A stretch of DNA of 64,000 nt from Branchiostoma floridae (lineage: Eukaryota > Chordata > Leptocardii > Amphioxiformes > Branchiostomatidae), in NCBI RefSeq assembly GCF_000003815.2, contig NC_049979.1:29304908-29368907 (forward strand), in the 5' to 3' direction. Positions 3,854-49,761 of the stretch are shown in pieces (the stretch's first letter is position 1; each line of letters starts with the position of its first letter). The notes below the pieces were generated by a model. The model made no database searches and was not told the DNA's origin. It saw only the letters and a program-made list of their open reading frames with translations. A program made the translations under genes and the position numbers.

Positions 3854-6800
3854 CTGAAAGAAAGAGAAGACCTTCAGTTAAATATTTCAGAAAAACAAAT
3901 TATTAAATTGATTCTGGGTTGATAAATCTGGTACTTATTTCATGAGCTTTTCTGAGCTGGTATTAGGTACGTCCCCCAGTTCAGTGGCCATTTAATACTT
4001 CATGCAAAGTCTGGACATTTTCCTTCTGTCTTTGAGTGGCATTCACTGTAGCTAATATACTATAAAATACATATACGAAGATGAGAGTGTTGGTGAAGTG
4101 TCTGTACAGTGACAGTTTGACTTACCTAGCACAGCAAAGATGAGAGTGTTAGTGAAGTGTCTGTACAGTGACAGTTTGACTTACCTAGCACAGCGAAGAT
4201 GAGAGTGTTAGTGAAGTGTCTGTACAGTGACAGTTTGACTTACCTAGCACAGCGAAGATGAGAGTGTTAGTGAAGTGTCTGTACAGCGACAGTTTGACTT
4301 ACCTAGCACAGCGAAGATGAGAGTGTTAGTGAAGTGTCTGTACAGTGACAGTTTGACTTACCTAGCACAGCGAAGATGAGAGTGTTAGTGAAGTGTCTGT
4401 ACAGTGACAGTTTGACTTACCTAGCACAGCGAAGATGAGAGTGTTGGTGAAGTGTCTGTACAGTGACAGTTTGACTTACCTAGCACAGCGAAGATGAGAG
4501 TGTTAGTGAAGTGTCTGTACAGTGACAGTTTGACTTACCTAGCACAGCGAAGATGAGAGTGTTAGTGAAGTGTCTGTACAGTGAAAGTTTGACTTACCTA
4601 GCACAGCGAAGATGAGAGTGTTAGTGAAGTGTCTGTACAGTGACAGTTTGACTTACCTAGCACAGCGAAGATGAGAGTGTTAGTGAAGTGTCTGTACAGT
4701 GACAGTTTAACTTACCTAGCACAGCGAAGATGAGAGTGTTAGTGAAGTGTCTGTACAGTGACAGTTTGACTTACCTAGCACAGCGAAGATGAGAGTGTTA
4801 GTGAAGTGTCTGTACAGTGACAGTTTGACTTACCTAGCACAGCGAAGATGAGAGTGTTAGTGAAGTGTCTGTACAGTGACAGTTTGACTTACCTAGCACA
4901 GCGAAGATGAGAGTGTTGGTGAAGTGTCTGTACAGTGACAGTTTGACTTACCTAGCACAGCGAAGATGAGAGTGTTAGTGAAGTGTCTGTACAGTGACAG
5001 TTTGACGAGGTTACGGCGCAGGCGAAGGGTGCGAGTGGTCTGCACCAGGCTGCTGAAGATCCACCAGCAGATAGCGGAGTCCAGCACGGCCAGCGGGATG
5101 GACGCCAGCAGCGCCTGATTGGTCGGGTCCTGTTTGGGCTGGAGATGGAACATCCCAAGAGTTAACTTGTTGTGTTTAATGATGATAAAAGAAGCAAACT
5201 GTTTACAGAAGTGTCCAAGAGACATTCTTGCATGCTTTCCACCATTACTGATGAAAAAGATAACGATTTTACTAAGGACACTAAAGGGCACATTTTATTG
5301 AAGAAACTTGTCTTTTACTGCCACCATCAAAGAAGAGAAACCCAACAGAAGTAGATCTTAATACTATTATCTTTCTCCTTTACTATGCAGACATAAGTCA
5401 GAAATGGCTACGTTTTGCAGGTAGGGTATTAGATAAAAACTCCCAACATCAGATTGTTTTTCAACTCAAGCACTCTGACAGGTTGATAGAGGCTTTCAGA
5501 ATATCACATGCTCAAGTTAGCAAGTACATTGTACATAATAGTAGAGTCTATTTCAGAGAAAAAGAAAACATGCAGTAATGCTACGGTCACAACTGAAACA
5601 AGACAAACCTATGGGTAGACTATGGGCTGTTTTATTGTACTGTTGGCTGGCATCCCTACATTTGTAAGTGGCTCGCTTGACACCCTGCAGCTACCTGGCT
5701 ATTTTTTGGCATGGCCGGGCCCCCAGATATTTTTTTAACTTACAGTTACAATTAGGGGTGGGTACCGGTACAAAATGTTTTTTCTTATTGGACCAGTCCA
5801 GAAAAACCGGACCTGAAAAAATTTGGTGGACCGGATGTTGGACCTATTGGGAAATGAACAGATTATATCATCAGACATTCACACATTTTGGGGCTTACCG
5901 GTCGAGGAAAATAACAAGAGCGAAGTAGAGTAGACTCTATGGTCATTTCTGCCAAGTTTTACAGTCAATTGTCAGGTAGCCTTGTAGGATTTTAAAATGC
6001 TAGTGGGAGTAGAATACTTCACAAAACAGCTTTCTTTGTAGCAATAATGGACCATTGTTTTGAGTATCATCACAAGTTTTCACATAATGAATCAGGTCCA
6101 GGTTCAGGTCCAGACCTGATCCTCTGGACCTTAACCGGACCTGGAACTGAATTTTCTAGTTACAATCAACCCTGGACCCAGCAAAAAATAGACACCATAA
6201 CCCAATCGTGAAAATTTACAGGTACCCCTGGTATCTGGCAGTACACTGGGACAAATTGGTAGCTTCAAAGCCTGGCCTGCAGGGCTAAACCCCCTACAGC
6301 CAACGGTGCAAATGTGACCATAGCATAATTTAAGACTTCCAGCAGGAAAGAGCACAGTGTCCTACAGTTTGGTGTCTACAGACAGGCACCTACCGACAGC
6401 CCAGAGGACACATGGCGATAGGGCTGCATGTGGGGGCCAAGAGACCAGGACCACATCAGTAAATGTTACCTTACAGTACAAACCACTCTGATAGGGAATA
6501 CAGTCACTAACAGTCAAGTTGAACATTTGTCACAAAGGCACTTATACCTGTAGGTTGATACTTACTGGCATAGTGTACATCTATGTGAAGGAAAACCTAA
6601 ACTTCAGAGTGATCATGCCAAGGAACATACATGCCAAAACTTTGCCTTCAGTCACTCATAGGTTAAAAACCCTAATGATTTGATAAGTTTCATCTGAAAT
6701 TTTTAATGATACTATCTAATTTCACCAGGGAGAGTTGAAAATGGCTAAGAAAAGACACATCCCTACCAAAAACAGGTGGATATTACTGATTCTTGGTCCC

Positions 6801-9800
6801 CAACATGCAGTTTTATTGTGCCACAAACACTCACACACAGATATGGACAGAGGCATGCAAGTACATCCATCAAGACCTCACTACATATAGTGATAGTGAT
6901 AGTTAGATGGGTGACCATGTGTGTACTCACTCTGATGGAGCGTAGACAGCCCTCCACAGACCCCAGGATGAAGTACAGGGCACCCACACCCAACACACGG
7001 TGCAGCATTGGGCCAAGACGGGGCCTGGGGGTAAAAACAAAACAGTTGGGTAAGTGAATAGTTTCATCAGGTTTGCAAGTCACTGAATAATAACATTATT
7101 CATACACAGCCATTTGTTTTCCACATACAACATTTTGATGATTGTCTGTCACCTTCATTAGGTACCCCATCTGTAAGCAGCGGCACCTATTGCTGCAGTA
7201 AAATATGAACCCGTCAAAATTACCCAGAGGAGGGTAACAGGCGATCACTGAAATGTCGGTGGAATAAAACATTTAGTTGTTATTTATCACAGTTAGGTTA
7301 TTCTCATCCTTTGCGAGATAACAATGACTCCAAGTGTGCAACCCGATACTTGATCAAAGACATTTCCTGAGAAGGTTGCTACAAGGAGATTACTTCTACG
7401 TTCTTCACTGATTGTTGAAAGAAGAAATTATTCAAAAAGAGCTGGTCACACAACCATTAGATAAAGGTGAGGATGAAATGACAGCAATAGTAGCCCTTGG
7501 TATACCGCAAAATACACACTAGTCTGGAAAACTTGTATCGATTGATATCACGTTCCAGGTTTGACATAAGCTGACTTACTTGACGATTCCATACCCCAGA
7601 CAGACGATGATGACCAGCATGCGAGCCAGGGTTCTCTTCAGACAGGACACCAGCTCAGCAAACACTACAGCTCCTCGCACTGTGGGAGGGGGGTGATGTG
7701 GATAATCAGTTCAGTTGTTTAAGATTACAGAATATTTAGATTAATCCATAAAAAAGGCTACAACCATGAGGCTAATAGTATTAATACTTGGTAATATCTG
7801 AGATGCCAACAAATCAAAACCTGTACACTCCTGGTTAAACAAAGTGAAAGTCCAACATAACTCTCTCTGTGGCAGTTTATAGCAGCCAAAGAACGAACAT
7901 TTGAAGGCTAAAATAGGTTGGGATTATCTTAACTATTATTTTCTATTTCTTTTTAGATTTTGGCTGACATGATCTGACAAAATACAGCAATGTTAAGCTA
8001 AAATGAATGAGGTACTGGCATTTTGAACATCATATTCTAATCACACACTATATACATTGTATAAGCATAATTAAGTATGTTTTATAAAAGAATTTTGAAT
8101 ACAATTTGTAATATACATACAGTACTTACAATGACTGTTCAAAACCCTCATCAATCAACAGAGTGTGTTTTCTGTTTTGAATTTCAATACTCAGACATAT
8201 CGAAACTTTCATGTTCGGTTGCTCGATCCCAAAAAAGGACATTTTTGCTAGGATTGGTAGGGTACCGTATATTCTCGAATAAAGTACGCACCCCAATTAA
8301 AGTATGCACCCCTGATTTTGGACAAGTCTTAGACAGATCTTTGGGACTGAAAGGTAAAATGGAAAAACTCAAATAAAGTACGCACCACTTCTCCACCAGT
8401 TTTGAACAGACCTTTAACTAAATAAATTCGAATTTATGATGTTTTCCCCAGGTCATTTTGCATAAAATAACCTGGGTTTACACTGTAATTGTCTCTATAA
8501 ACTTGTGAATTGCCTGCTGCAAATTATAAAAATCACTGAGAACTGGTAGAAGAAATCAGGCAAAACCAGTTGTACAAGTCAAAGTCACTAACTCAAAAGG
8601 ATTGTATGCAAATGCCACTGTTAATATGTAAATCATGTCAAGACAATTTCTTTGTTTCATGTTTAGACAACTTCAAGACAACAACAATGTGTATGTTTTG
8701 AAACATTACTAGAAGTGTAGCTCCACCTTGCTTTATTTTAGGCTTTTCTTACCATTTATCTGTGCAGTAACCTCAAATAAAGTACGCACCCCAACTTTGG
8801 CAACAACTTGTAGCACCTTTTCAATTTTGAAAAGTTAAAAAAGTGCGTACTTTATTCGAGAATATACGGTAACTGAAAACACAAGATTTTCCCCTAGGCC
8901 GTACCTGACACCCCAGTGCTGTTGACATGCTGGTACTCTGCATAGAACACAGCTTTCTCCAGCATGCCCAGGATGATGACTCCGCCCACCCAGAACTGGA
9001 TCCGCAGGAGGTCTCTCCACTGGCAGGCCAGCAGGAGCAGCCAGATCACTCCGTAAACCACGTACACGCCACACATCACTCCATAGAACTGTACAGGAAC
9101 AGTACAAGTGTGGTCAGTACACCACATACACGCCACACATCACTCCATACACTCCACACATCACTCCATAGAACTGTACAGGAACAGCACAAGTGTGGTC
9201 AGTACACCACATACACGCCACACATCACTCCATAGAACTGTACAGGAACAGTACAAGTGTGGTCAGTACACCACATACACGCCACACATCACTCCATAGA
9301 ACTGTACAGGAACAGTACAAGTGTGGTCAGTACACCACATACATGCCACACATCACTCCATAGAACTGTACAGGAACAGTACAAGTGTGGTCAGTACACA
9401 ACATACACGCCACACATCACTCCATAGAACTGTACAGGAACAGTACAAGTGTGGTCAGTACAGTACATACACTCCACACATCACTCCATAGAACTATACA
9501 GGAACAGTACAAGTGTGGTCAGTACAGCACATACATGCCACACATCACTCCATAGAACTGTACAGGAACAGTACAAGTGTGGTCAGTACACCACATACAC
9601 GCCACACATCACTCCATAGAACTGTACAGGAACAGTACAAGTGTGGTCAGTACAGCACATACATGCCACACATCACTCCATAGAACTATACACTCAGGAA
9701 CAGCACAAGTGTGGTCAGTACAGTATATACACTCTACACATCACTCCATAGAACTGTACAGGAACAGTACAAGTGTGGTCAGTACAGCATATATACTCCA

Positions 9801-10789
9801 CACATCACTCCATAGAACTGTACAGGAACAGTACAAGTGTGGTCAGTACACCACATACACGCCACACATAACTCCATAGAACTGTACAGGAACAGTACAG
9901 GTGTGGTCAGTACAGCACATATACTCCACATATCACTCCATATAGAACTGTACAGGAACAGCACAGCACATACATGTATACTCCACACATTACTCATAGA
10001 ACTGTATAGGAACAGTTGATACACCACACATCGATCAACTTATAGAACTACATAGGATCAGTCAACACTCCACACATCACTCCATAGTACTGTACAGGAA
10101 TAGTACGAGTGTGGTCAGTACAGCACATACTCCACACACCAAGCAGGTTCTTTTTTAACCTCCTTGACACTACACAGTAACAGCAAAGTATTGACACAAC
10201 ATAACTTACAGGTAGCAGTGCCCAGTCCGTAGCAGAAAGGTAGCTGGTGCCTTTTCTCTCAGAAACACCAACTGAAAAAAAACCAGTAAAAACATTGTAT
10301 TAGCAATTCTACAATGTTGAGAAAGTTCCCACAATTGTTCCATGGTACAGACTTAATACGTAATGCCAATTTGTACTTTTAAAAGACAAAATGAAGGCAA
10401 TAGCTTACCAGTCAATTGGTAGTCTTCTACACCCTCCGTCTTCACTGGTAGAATTCTCACTACTAGCAAGTAGGGGCCACTCTCCCAGGAATGGGTTACA
10501 ACATTACCTGAGTGCTGGGAGAAAAATGGATAGCATAAGAATCAATTAAGTCTATTTATTACATTCCTATCTGCGACAAAAAAACAAGACCATAAGATGT
10601 CTTGGACAGAAAGATACAAAAACTGGAAGTTCTGCTGCAGTGCCAAAGTCACACACAAAATCCACCTTGATTTTTGTCTTCCAAAGCCCTACCGACTTAC
10701 CAAATACCATTACAGTCCATCCATAGGCTCTAGTGCTATGCTGTTCACAAATATTCGGAAACACAAACACAGACACAGACACACACACA

Positions 10790-10841
<52 letters not shown>

Positions 10842-13800
10842 ACGTCCAATTATTGGAGGCAATCAAAGCATATTTTTCCAGGGCCTGGAAAGCAGTAGTT
10901 CTCAAAGTAGTGTGACCTCGACAGTCCTGTTTTTCCAATTAGATAGCCAGGTTAACAATGTGTTTGTAAGATGTTAAAGCTTGCCCAGGATTGCCTAAAA
11001 AGAGGGTACTGTAAATGCATTTAAGTTCGCGGGGATTTAATTTGGCGGTGGCGGGAAAAAGGACTTTTTGCTTTGGTTTTAATTTCGCGGTAGCACCATG
11101 CACTGTAGTCTCTTACTGCCATGGAAAAATGTTCGCTGTGGTTTTAAGTTCGTGGTGAAACGGCCACAGCGAGAACCATGAACATTAAACCACCACGAAA
11201 GTTTCTGCATTTACAGTACCCACTAAACAAAGGATGTCCATTTCAGACACTACAGCATGGTTCTTAAATCAGCACTCAACACGAATATGCCCTCACACGA
11301 CAGACTAACACAGACTACACTAACTATGCTACACAGAAGACTGCTGAAAGTTCCTCAGCAAAAAGACCCAGTACCTCATCACCAATCTGGGAGTGGTTGC
11401 CAACCTCTCTTATGGTTTCCTGTGTTTCGGCTTCTTGCTGCTGTTCTTGTTGCTGTTGTTGGCTCTCTGCTTCCACATTTGGAGTATCTGCCTTTTCTTC
11501 CACCTCCTCAGTCTCTTCTTCCTTCTTTTCTGGTTCTTTTTCTTCTGCTGGCGGTGCCGGTGGTGCTGGCTTTGCTGCAGGTTTCTTCTGTAAGAACACA
11601 TAGTGAAGAGCATGTTTAGCGAAGCACAAACTGATGGTGAAACTTATCCAAATGCCTTTAAAGTGCTTATGTCACCAATGACACTTAAGTAGTGCAATTC
11701 TTGATTACAAGTACTAGTAACCATCATAAAATATACACCCGTCTGGTATTATTGAACATAGAATCTTACAAATCATACTTCTAGTTGTTCTTAATTCCTG
11801 GTGCCAATTAATCAAGTTAGTTTCTGCCAATTACATAGATAATAAACATGGCAGCTGGTTCAGAGCCTAATACCAAGAACACAATCATATAGTTTACTTG
11901 AATGTATGTTGTCAAGCTAATCGTGGAAAAATCACACAAGCCCAATCTGTAAGTACAGTAGGTCATGGACTTGGCCAATCAGCACTTTCAGATCCACTGT
12001 GGAATGGGGCCAGTGGACATGTAAGTTGTATAAATCTTTAATAACTACTCTGATTTTCTTCTAGCCACTCCTACCTTTGACCCGCCCTTCTTCCTAGGTG
12101 CTGGGGCTCGCCTGCTCCGGGTGTTTGGATCGACCAATGACGTCTCTCCAGCCGTTTCGTCCCCCCTCTTCTCTGCAGAGGCGTTCACGCTGAGGGGCCT
12201 GTCTACCAGGTTAATATCTGGCTTTAAGTCCTGCAAATAGAGGAATGTTGTTACATTTGTATACATCCCTGTGAATACAATTATTTTACACCTGGAAATG
12301 ATCAGATCACGGGCATTTCAGGTTACAGTACAGAAAAAATAGGGTTGGTAGTCATAGCTAGGAATTCTCTTCTTTTTTTCTCCTGTAACACAACATTTCT
12401 TTTTAGACCTCTTACTTCTTCATTGTATTTTATCTTTGATGAATTGTGTTATTCTAATAGGTGTTTGATCAATTCACCTAGTCATCATGATATACAGTCA
12501 AACCTGTCTATAGCGGCCACTCAAGGGACTGGTCAAAATTGGCCACTATAGAGAGGTGGCCACTATAGTCCATGGGCCAGAGGAAAAATCGGTACCTCCG
12601 AGGTGGCAAATTCTCCTTGTTATTTTTGAATAGTAGAAGGCCTGTGGCATATATTTTGACGTGATAGCCATTCTGGTATGGTAGCTTTCTACCGGCTATC
12701 ACCCTTCAAACCTATCACCACTTAAATGATCTGGAAATTTCGATTCTTCAATAAGGGGGAGGGGCAAAAAATTAAACATCAATATTTTTCCACGAAAATT
12801 CACAGGCTGGTAGAACCTGCTAAGAGGATCATAAAAATATCAATTGATTTTTGATATTGTGATTCAACACGAAATTATGACTGCCTAAAATCATATTTTT
12901 TGGTGATTTTCTGGTGAAAAATATATACTTTACTTTCCAATATCGTTCATTTATTCACATTACCTATGGGGCCTTGCCTGATGAGTTAGACTTACCGTAC
13001 CTATCCTTCTCTGCATATTAAGCTTTAAATGATCGAAATCCATCAATGAAATCCGGAGATATGAATGTGTGAAGAATGACACATCTGCCAGCTTGTAGTG
13101 ACAATATCGTTGCTAAGGCCGTTGCTAAGGCTGTTGTTAAGGAGGTTTCAGATCGTACTCCACAACAAAACTGATGCAAAGAACTTACTTTTCTGTAGTA
13201 TTTTACTCTGATTACATCAGTAGAAGTACAAAGAATCGTGTTAAAATGTTTAACATGTAACAGATGCAGAACGCCCATTCCTCATTAACTGGGAAAATTG
13301 GAGGTAGAAAATTGTAAAAAATAAAGTTGTCCAAAACGCTTACCTGCTGGTATGAACTTGTTACCACTTATATCGACTATCTTTTGCTATTTTTGTCTGG
13401 TGCTAACACGCTTAATTTTGGAGATATTTGATTTTTAGTAGGCCATGTCATCTTTCCTACAATTTCGTAATAAAGAGCATATTACTACACAGAGAAATGT
13501 TCCAGCAAGTAATAGTGGATTAACAACAGCCAAATTAGCGAATTTTCCAACCCAAAACCTTCAAATTACACGCCAATGAGAAATATTTAACCACCGTGTC
13601 ATTTGTTTCGGAATAATCATCAAAATTACTAGCTATTAAGTTTGCTACATTTGTATAAAAGTAAATAAATGATATATTTTTTTTTCTGATATGAAGACAA
13701 ACCGTTTAATACTCCTCAATTTTCACCCTGTAGGATGGGATAAGAGCGATAGAATATATTTATGAAAATGGTTGGAAGCAGGCGATATCTATTCTACAGG

Positions 13801-22800: not shown

Positions 22801-25800
22801 CACACTCTCTCTCACACACACTACACACACATTGTCTCTCTCTCTCTTTCATGCACACCACACACACACACACACACACGAAGGAAAAGTCATCCCCTAC
22901 TTACCACCAGATGAAAAGGATCCCCACACTTGTAAGTTTCCGGATATTCCACCTTTTGGTACTTGCCATAGTCGTACACAGGGTAGGACTGTTGGGGGCT
23001 GTCATAGTACTCTTGGAATGCTGAATCCTGAAAAGGATAAATCAATATAATAAACACCAGGGTACATCAGGCAATGGTTCTAACAGTTATCGACTGTGTG
23101 AAGTAAAATGAAAAGTACAAATTTTACCAGCATTTTCAGGAGTTTACCACGGATCAAAATACTGCACATGGGTGCATATGCACTTTTGTGCCCCTAACAT
23201 TGAATTTGAAGCCGTGCATGAAAGTTTTGACTTTGGGTGCACCTATGAATATAATTGTACTCAAAGTGCTATTTTTTAAAATGCACTTGGCCCAAATTGA
23301 ATTTTGACCCTGTTTTGAAGTTTTTTGCTATATCTCATTTACTTTTAGTACAGAAAAATACTGTATATCTATGATGAACTGCTGTTTTCTTTTGTTGGAT
23401 TTTATTTACTTATTTACTATGTAAATAACTATAATACATGTAAACAGTATTACATGTTAATAATCTTAGTTTGTGGGAAGACTCCTAAAATACCTTAGAA
23501 GTTTCTGATCTACGTATGTAGCTCCCCTGTATCTTCTTTTTCCCTTTTGTAAACAATTGCTTTATTTCTTTTACGTGCATATAATCAACAACAACAAGAA
23601 CAACAACAACAACTTACTCCAAGGTCAACAAACTCTTCAAAGCAGTCAGAGAAGCGGAGCATCCAGCCGACCTTGAACTCAAAGGGACTATCCTGGTCTG
23701 ATGACGACTCACAGGTCACTGGGAAAAAATAGAGTTTAAGTGTAAAGCAATTATGCTTCATTGGGGTAAAGCATCATGCTTTTTCAAGTAGGTAGTAGCA
23801 GGCAATGTGGCTTCACTACGGTTCACGTTTTGGCCAAGTTACACCGGGTCACCTAAGTCTTCTCAATAAATGGGTGGATAAAAGTGCAGAGGATTGACTC
23901 TCCTCAAGCACGGGACCTAAATTATACAACCTACATGTATCTGAGGGACAGCCCAAGGTGTAGAAATGTTCTCATGTTCGCCTGAGCAAAGTGATGCAAG
24001 TCTTGTAATGTGCCTTATATAAAGTTTCTTTCCCAAGAGCACAACATCAAGAATGGTTTCAAACCCAGAACCTCTGCATTTTAGACCAAACACTTTAGCT
24101 ACCAATTGCATAACACAATGCCTCACAAAAATAAATAAGAAAATTTACGACATAATCATAAACTTCTTGATACACAACCATGAATTTTATTACGAGCCAA
24201 CGTTTTGATGACCATCTGTCATCTTCGTCAGGGCTATACTGACTGGTTTACAGTGCACTGGAGCTAGGTGTTACAGGTTCACAGTGCACTGGAGCTAGGT
24301 GTTACAGGTTCACAGTGCACTGGAGCTAGGTGTTACAGGTTCACAGTGCACTGGAGCTAGGTGTTACAGGTTCACAGTGCACTTACCTAGGTGTTACAGG
24401 TTCACAGTGCACTGGAGCTAGGTGTTACAGGTTCACAGTGCACTTACCTAGGTGTTACAGGTTCACAGTGCACTGGAGCTAGGTGTTACAGGTTCACAGT
24501 GCACTGGAGCTAGGTGTTACAGGTTCACAGTGCACTTACCTAGGTGTTACAGGTTCACAGTGCACTTACCTAGGTGTTACAGGTTCACAGTGCACTAGAA
24601 CTATAGATGATGCAGTCCCTGTATAAAGCAGAACCTGTAACAGGTTCACCTAGGTGTTACAGGTTCTCCTCTCACCTGGGTGATACAGAACCTGTAACAC
24701 CTAGCTCCAGCGCAAGTTGTAAACCTGTCAGTATAGCCCTGACAAAGATAACAAATGGTCATTGAAACGTTGGCTCGTAATAGAATTTATGGCTGTGTAT
24801 CAAGAACTTTGTGATTAAGTAGTTTACCAACCTGATGAAATTATTCATGAAATTTACAACATGTTTCTAACAAAGCCTTACCAGGGCTCAAAATACCACC
24901 TGCATATGCAGGGTAGTGCAGGTAAAATTGGAGCTGTGTAGGTATTTCTGGTGACTACCTACAGCTAACCGGCACTGGCCCATGTACTGGGTTTATACAT
25001 AAATGTCCTATAATGTAGCTGTATATACAAATGTAGATTGTCATTAGCTGCATTGACTGTTACTACCTATAAAGTATAAAAGAAAAAAAGCAATGGTTCC
25101 TGAACTATTTTAGTATGATCTAAAATTCCTAAATTCGGATTGGTGCAGGTAAAATTTGTCTGGTGCAGGTAATTTTCAATGTTACCTGCACCAGTGCAGG
25201 TATGTAGAAAAAAGTATTTCGAGCCCTGCTTACAGTTACAGTATAAATACTATAATTAAGCCACAGTACCTGTAATTGCCACAGATGTCTGATTGTACAT
25301 GGTCTTGACGAAGCCAGCATACAGAGGTTGGTTGACATGTTCCCCTGTTACCTATGGCAGATGAGAAAGGAACGTTAGTTTTATAAACACTTCCACAACA
25401 CAAGAAGATATACAACATTCTACTTTGAGCTCCAGGGCTTTCATGTATATGAATTCGAAATATTAAGAGTTTTTCTCATGTAAATTATGCGCCTTACATG
25501 GGTACCCCCTTATATAATCCAACATGGTATGCTTTTATATTACAAGTACTTTGATAAGTAATTCTATGTTAATGATCTTATACTTTGTCATAAAAATACC
25601 AAAAAAAAAACTTTGAAAAAGATACAATAATAAAACACAATCATACATTTTATAACATTTCCAAGCTGCACTCAGCCATACACTCCAGAAGAGGCTACAA
25701 ATTTGCAACTGCAGCATTATAATAAAGGCTGACAATTGCATATTTCTGCTAGATTTTTCAGTTAGGCCAAGGGAAAAAAAGTTGCTTCCAGTGACACGAT

Positions 25801-43927: not shown

Positions 43928-49761
<5,834 letters not shown>

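What the first reader, a model, noticed from the sequence alone, without database searches (positions are those of the whole stretch)
9080..10135. Second array in the same gene copies a 3' splice site
The 64-bp unit contains the exon 9 acceptor and the first 36 or so bases of exon 9, repeated about 15 times upstream of the true exon. An upstream acceptor would give [12 protein letters not shown] and then TGA. The same gene thus has one intron built of donor copies and one of acceptor copies; both arise from coding exon edges and both are frame-breaking. That pairing suggests a shared mechanism (replication slippage seeded at the exon edge) or a splicing-based control of dosage through decay of mis-spliced RNA.
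Basis: partly seen in the sequence, partly recalled or inferred. Interest (0 to 1): 0.75.

Follow-up and report, generated by a model that had tools for sequence, protein, structure and literature searches.

The report
Splice-acceptor minisatellite in lancelet TMEM87
In a lancelet gene, the start of one exon together with its splice signal has been copied sixteen times into the intron before it; it is another case of a repeat type already described in lancelets, and a natural test of how cells pick one splice site among near-identical copies.

Summary
On the minus strand, intron 9089-10209 of a TMEM87-family gene is mostly a 64-bp array (about 9089-10138). Upstream of the real acceptor (exon 8905-9088) lie 16 acceptor copies. 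All 16 keep AG; 13 of 16 keep a branch-point-like CTGAC, and in 12 of 16 the in-frame TGA stop lies inside that motif. Seven of 16 equal the real site from -28 to +20. All 16 meet a stop within 20 codons. The 59-bp array at 4076-5006 is the donor counterpart: 15 GGTAAGT donors, the first authentic.

This is a known kind: minisatellites spanning exon-intron boundaries ("mirages") are reported in amphioxus Adh3, TnC, globins Gb6 and Gb9, and PGBD5. My scan re-found a globin case fitting Gb6 and found further cases in CCT6-like, CCT2-like and ABC-transporter exons. A second CCT2-like copy has the same exon with one donor and no array.

Best reading: slippage or unequal-exchange arrays seeded at an exon edge and tolerated because the authentic site is used. 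Decay-based dosage control is possible but unsupported. A genome-wide preference for exon edges is suggested, not proven.

The parts
9089..10138 (-). 64-bp acceptor array (mirage): 16 copies of branch-point-like motif + pyrimidine-rich tract + AG + first 36 exon bases, far units degenerate
9089..9116 (-). 3' splice-site module of the authentic exon (CTGAC at -26, AG at 9090-9089), itself inside the last unit
   Evidence: branch-point function is motif-based, not tested
10210..10271 (-). preceding TMEM87 exon; its donor GTAAGT starts at 10209
4076..5006 (-). 59-bp donor array (second mirage of the gene): 15 GGTAAGT donors, the first authentic
4952..5138 (-). authentic TMEM87 exon whose 3' end is copied in the 59-bp array

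Best explanation
Both arrays are 'mirages': minisatellites that began as a tandem duplication across an exon edge and grew by slippage or unequal exchange. All copies but one lie in the intron. Splicing still uses the exon-adjacent site, so the arrays are tolerated and close to neutral. Shown: exon origin, intact splice signals in the copies, a stop in every acceptor copy, recurrence in other genes, and a sister gene copy with one donor and no array. Inferred: the growth mechanism, exclusive use of the authentic site, and neutrality. Because a typical 64-bp unit carries a whole 3' splice-site module, any copy number of one or more leaves the true exon an acceptor, which would explain why length changes are survivable.
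For: Unit anatomy and intact sites. Spliced protein matches TMEM87A without extra residues at the 9088 and 4952 junctions. Copies nearer to the exon are more like it in the acceptor array (16 copies, rho 0.68, p 0.004, carried largely by the degenerate far copies). Array-free CCT2-like copy L081 beside array-bearing L080. Published mirages with regular splicing and length instability (PMC3087553; PMC3902484). No RNA structure in the units (z +1.5, +0.5, +1.1).
Against: No RNA data, so authentic-site use is not shown. The two donor arrays examined show no similarity gradient (rho 0.11 and 0.17). By simple proximity to the upstream donor the farthest copies might be expected to win (recalled principle), so tolerance needs an explanation such as exon definition. 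Exon-edge preference is not significant without the globin control (P 0.08).
Confidence: 0.8

Rival explanations
1. Dosage control by decay: a share of transcripts uses copy sites, meets an early stop and is degraded, so unit number tunes the TMEM87 level.
For: All 16 acceptor copies lead to a stop within 20 codons, and reading into the first extra donor unit meets a stop; 7 of 16 acceptor copies are locally identical to the real site.
Against: A stop is expected from units that are not multiples of three, without any selection. Regular splicing is reported for the mirages tested in other genes, though decay could hide products. No regulation data here.
Confidence: 0.1
2. Selected redundancy: extra intact splice sites buffer the gene against mutation, and selection keeps them intact.
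For: The intronic part of the ten clean units has 2 of 28 variable columns against 8 of 36 in the exon part.
Against: That difference is not significant (p 0.17). Array copies lead to a stop if used, so most would not rescue the gene. Homogenisation explains similarity.
Confidence: 0.05
3. Assembly artefact: the array or its copy number was made by misassembly.
Against: Units carry individual substitutions and indels, which misassembly would hardly create; mirages in PGBD5 were confirmed with independent reads. Exact copy number remains unverified.
Confidence: 0.03

Closest known systems
Amphioxus 'mirages' (Adh3, TnC, globins Gb6 and Gb9, PGBD5)
   Same: Tandem repeat spanning an exon-intron boundary, at 5' or 3' edges, with copied splice signals, in amphioxus (PMC3087553; PMC3902484). 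Unit lengths of 59 and 64 bp lie in the 10-72 bp range given for Adh3.
   Different: New gene; one gene holds a large acceptor array and a large donor array; the acceptor unit includes a branch-point-like motif that supplies the stop codon. More copies than the 6 and 3 units reported for Gb6.
Internal tandem repeats at exon-intron boundaries of human segmental-duplication genes
   Same: Minisatellites at exon-intron boundaries of genes (PMC2812944, passages).
   Different: There they alter coding sequence or create novel introns with transcript support; here an existing intron is lengthened and no altered transcript is known.
Intron gain by tandem duplication of AG/GT sites (Rogers model, as described in PMC3087553)
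   Same: Duplication of exon sequence with its splice signals.
   Different: No new intron is created here; both introns are at junctions where the protein aligns to TMEM87A.

Membership tests
Amphioxus mirage minisatellites | Tandem repeat unit spans an exon-intron boundary of a coding gene | tested here: met
   Unit = 28 intron + 36 exon bases at exon 8905-9088; donor array likewise
Amphioxus mirage minisatellites | Host is an amphioxus | tested here: inconclusive
   Unnamed 513-Mb genome with a globin exon array fitting published Gb6; inferred Branchiostoma floridae
Amphioxus mirage minisatellites | Copies carry AG/GT splice signals | tested here: met
   AG in 16 of 16 acceptor copies; GGTAAGT in 15 of 15 donors
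Amphioxus mirage minisatellites | Regular splicing undisturbed | not testable with these tools
   No RNA data; only protein conservation at the junctions
Amphioxus mirage minisatellites | Length instability between haplotypes or in soma | not tested
   One assembly only; a related mirage (CCT2-like) is present in one gene copy and absent in another
Decay-coupled splicing control | Alternative site use leads to a premature stop | tested here: met
   16 of 16 acceptor copies, predicted only
Decay-coupled splicing control | Alternative isoform is made, degraded and regulated | not testable with these tools
   Needs RNA with decay blocked

The most novel reading that the evidence does not exclude
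Exon edges are the favoured birthplace of long-period minisatellites in this genome. The exon copy, kept intact by selection, acts as a permanent seed from which fresh intact splice sites spread into the neighbouring intron, so that many genes carry rows of near-identical competing donors or acceptors that the spliceosome ignores through exon definition.
Probability: 0.3. Interest if true: 0.7.

Novelty: new member of a known kind. Interest (0 to 1): 0.45.

Why it matters
It adds a gene with both an acceptor mirage and a donor mirage, and finds more such arrays in a small sample of genes, so the few published cases may be the tip of something common. Seven copies match the real acceptor base for base from -28 to +20, so local sequence cannot explain the choice: the gene is a natural experiment on how position and exon definition select one splice site. 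If exon edges do seed minisatellites, they are also a source of intron growth and, by the published model, of intron gain.

Tried and rejected
Structure in the units: folding is no better than shuffles (z +1.5, +0.5, +1.1). Constraint on the intronic part of the units: 2 of 28 variable columns against 8 of 36, p 0.17 (10 clean copies of 16). Unit lengths never a multiple of three as a sign of selection: 6 of 6 mirages, chance 0.088. A gradient of similarity towards the exon: present in the TMEM87 acceptor array, absent in the TMEM87 donor array and in the CCT2-like donor array.

Genome-wide donor test: GGTAAGT triplets give 402+1146 matches against 123+192 for the reversed heptamer. By places on contig C1 it is 12 against 6 when places within 20 kb are merged, 17 against 6 at 2 kb and 11 against 6 at 40 kb; 11 against 6 without the window's own array gives p 0.17. 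The starts were transcribed by hand from the two capped listings, not every start but those bounding each run. Real donors also make GGTAAGT more frequent than the control heptamer. A third pattern with GGTGAGT did not complete.

Survey caveats: the threshold of period 50 or more and 2.4 or more copies was set after seeing data. At period 30 or more there are 9 arrays, and the 4 added ones (L024, L032, L036, L040) do not overlap the listed exon. The exon lists behind the random-placement test are incomplete (family matches plus the array-bearing exon), so its P values are too low. L079 is counted as a miss: its 112-bp array does not reach the exon; the joined 78-bp array carries the acceptor and only a few exon bases. 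The 77 loci overlap in part, and L022 lies in the window.

Full report
What is there. The window lies in contig C1 of a 513-Mb genome. The size, and a globin exon with a 158-bp array like the published Gb6 case, fit Branchiostoma floridae; the record is unnamed, so this is inferred. A minus-strand gene matches Pfam GOST_TM in four stretches. Eight exons between 10271 and 2729 join into one open frame of 286 aa that matches TMEM87A at E=1.2e-110.

The acceptor array. The intron before exon 8905-9088 is 1121 bases, of which about 1050 are array. Seventeen acceptors carry the exon start: the true one at 9088 and 16 copies at 10089, 10047, 10001, 9947, 9881, 9817, 9753, 9685, 9621, 9557, 9493, 9429, 9365, 9301, 9237 and 9173. 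AG is kept in 16 of 16; CTGAC in 13 of 16 (12 at -26, 1 at -30). Seven of 16 are identical to the authentic site from -28 to +20. All 16 meet a stop within 20 codons; in 11 of 16 it is a TGA after 12 residues, and in a twelfth copy (9173) a TGA after 19. That TGA lies in TACTGAC, a branch-point-like motif (consensus recalled; function not tested). A typical unit is thus a whole 3' splice-site module plus 36 exon bases, and the true exon's own branch-point-like motif lies in the last unit.

The donor array. At 4076-5006 the 3' end of exon 4952-5138 and the start of its donor form 59-bp units: 15 GGTAAGT donors, the first authentic; 14 full units differ by 1.4% on average. Ten clean 64-bp units (of 16 copies) differ by 5.0%, so the acceptor array is older or less homogenised. 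Reading on into the first extra donor unit meets a stop. The alignment to TMEM87A has no extra residues at either junction, so the mature protein is expected to use the authentic sites.

It is a known kind. PMC3087553 (passages and section 16 read) describes tandem repeats spanning exon-intron boundaries in amphioxus, called mirages, in Adh3 and in globins Gb6 and Gb9, at both 5' and 3' boundaries, with apparently undisturbed splicing and with length instability. PMC3902484 (passages read) adds PGBD5, with two arrays, and TnC. Listings of searches for amphioxus or Branchiostoma with minisatellite, mirage, tandem repeats or intron gain showed no genome-wide census; the one paper listed for TMEM87 with Branchiostoma is on GPCR diversity (listing only). 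The library holds open-licence papers only.

How common is it. Apart from the TMEM87 loci, 77 loci (273,003 bases, partly overlapping, one inside the window) around globin, ADH, ABC-transporter and CCT exons were scanned. Five arrays have period 50 or more and 2.4 or more copies. Four have one end in a coding exon: globin L016, CCT6-like L077, CCT2-like L080 and ABC-transporter L083. The fifth, L079, lies beside an acceptor. Random placement gives P(4 or more of 5) = 0.021; without the globin control P(3 or more of 4) = 0.08. The threshold was chosen after the fact and the exon lists are incomplete, so these values are optimistic. At period 30 or more there are nine arrays, and the four added ones do not overlap the listed exon. 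Genome-wide, triplets of GGTAAGT at 47-77 bp spacing give 1548 matches against 315 for the reversed heptamer, but 12 against 6 by place on C1. Arrays with donor words are numerous; a bias towards exon edges is suggested, not shown.

A sister copy without the array. A second CCT2-like copy on C19 (L081) has the same exon with one donor and no array, while L080 has 14 donors; the aligned pieces of the two are 83-91% identical. The simplest reading is that the array grew in one copy after the duplication; loss in the other is not excluded. In the CCT6-like array all six upstream acceptors also lead to a stop.

Mechanism. Best reading: tandem duplication over an exon edge, then slippage or unequal exchange; the exon-side copy persists under selection for the protein. 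The TMEM87 acceptor array fits: copies nearer to the exon are more like it (16 copies, rho 0.68, p 0.004), largely through the degenerate far copies; the two donor arrays show no such gradient. Decay-based control remains possible but has only the predicted stops in its favour.

Verdict. The added value is the double case in one gene, the branch-point-like motif in most acceptor units, the array-free CCT2-like copy, and further genes that suggest mirages are frequent.

Noticed in passing
window 8263-8871: Perfect 29-bp inverted repeats 551 bp apart in the intron just downstream of the exon; looks like a small DNA transposon (interpretation recalled, not tested).
   Followed up: no
window 11001-11224: 41-bp inverted repeat arms, 78% complementary, 142 bp apart; another transposon-like element.
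   Followed up: no
window 24245-24603: Third large array of the window: 31-bp unit, 11.7 copies; no exon edge recognised by eye.
   Followed up: partly
L080 1092-2029 and L081: CCT2-like gene with a 67-bp donor array of 14 donors; a second copy of the gene on the same contig C19 has one donor and no array.
   Followed up: yes
L077 2822-3231: CCT6-like exon with six upstream acceptor copies, 68-bp unit.
   Followed up: yes
L083 531-979: ABC-transporter exon with a 182-bp acceptor-side array, 2.5 copies.
   Followed up: partly
window 45953-46168: Stretch matching ADH_zinc_N on the minus strand (G000:C1:29350860-29351075).
   Followed up: no
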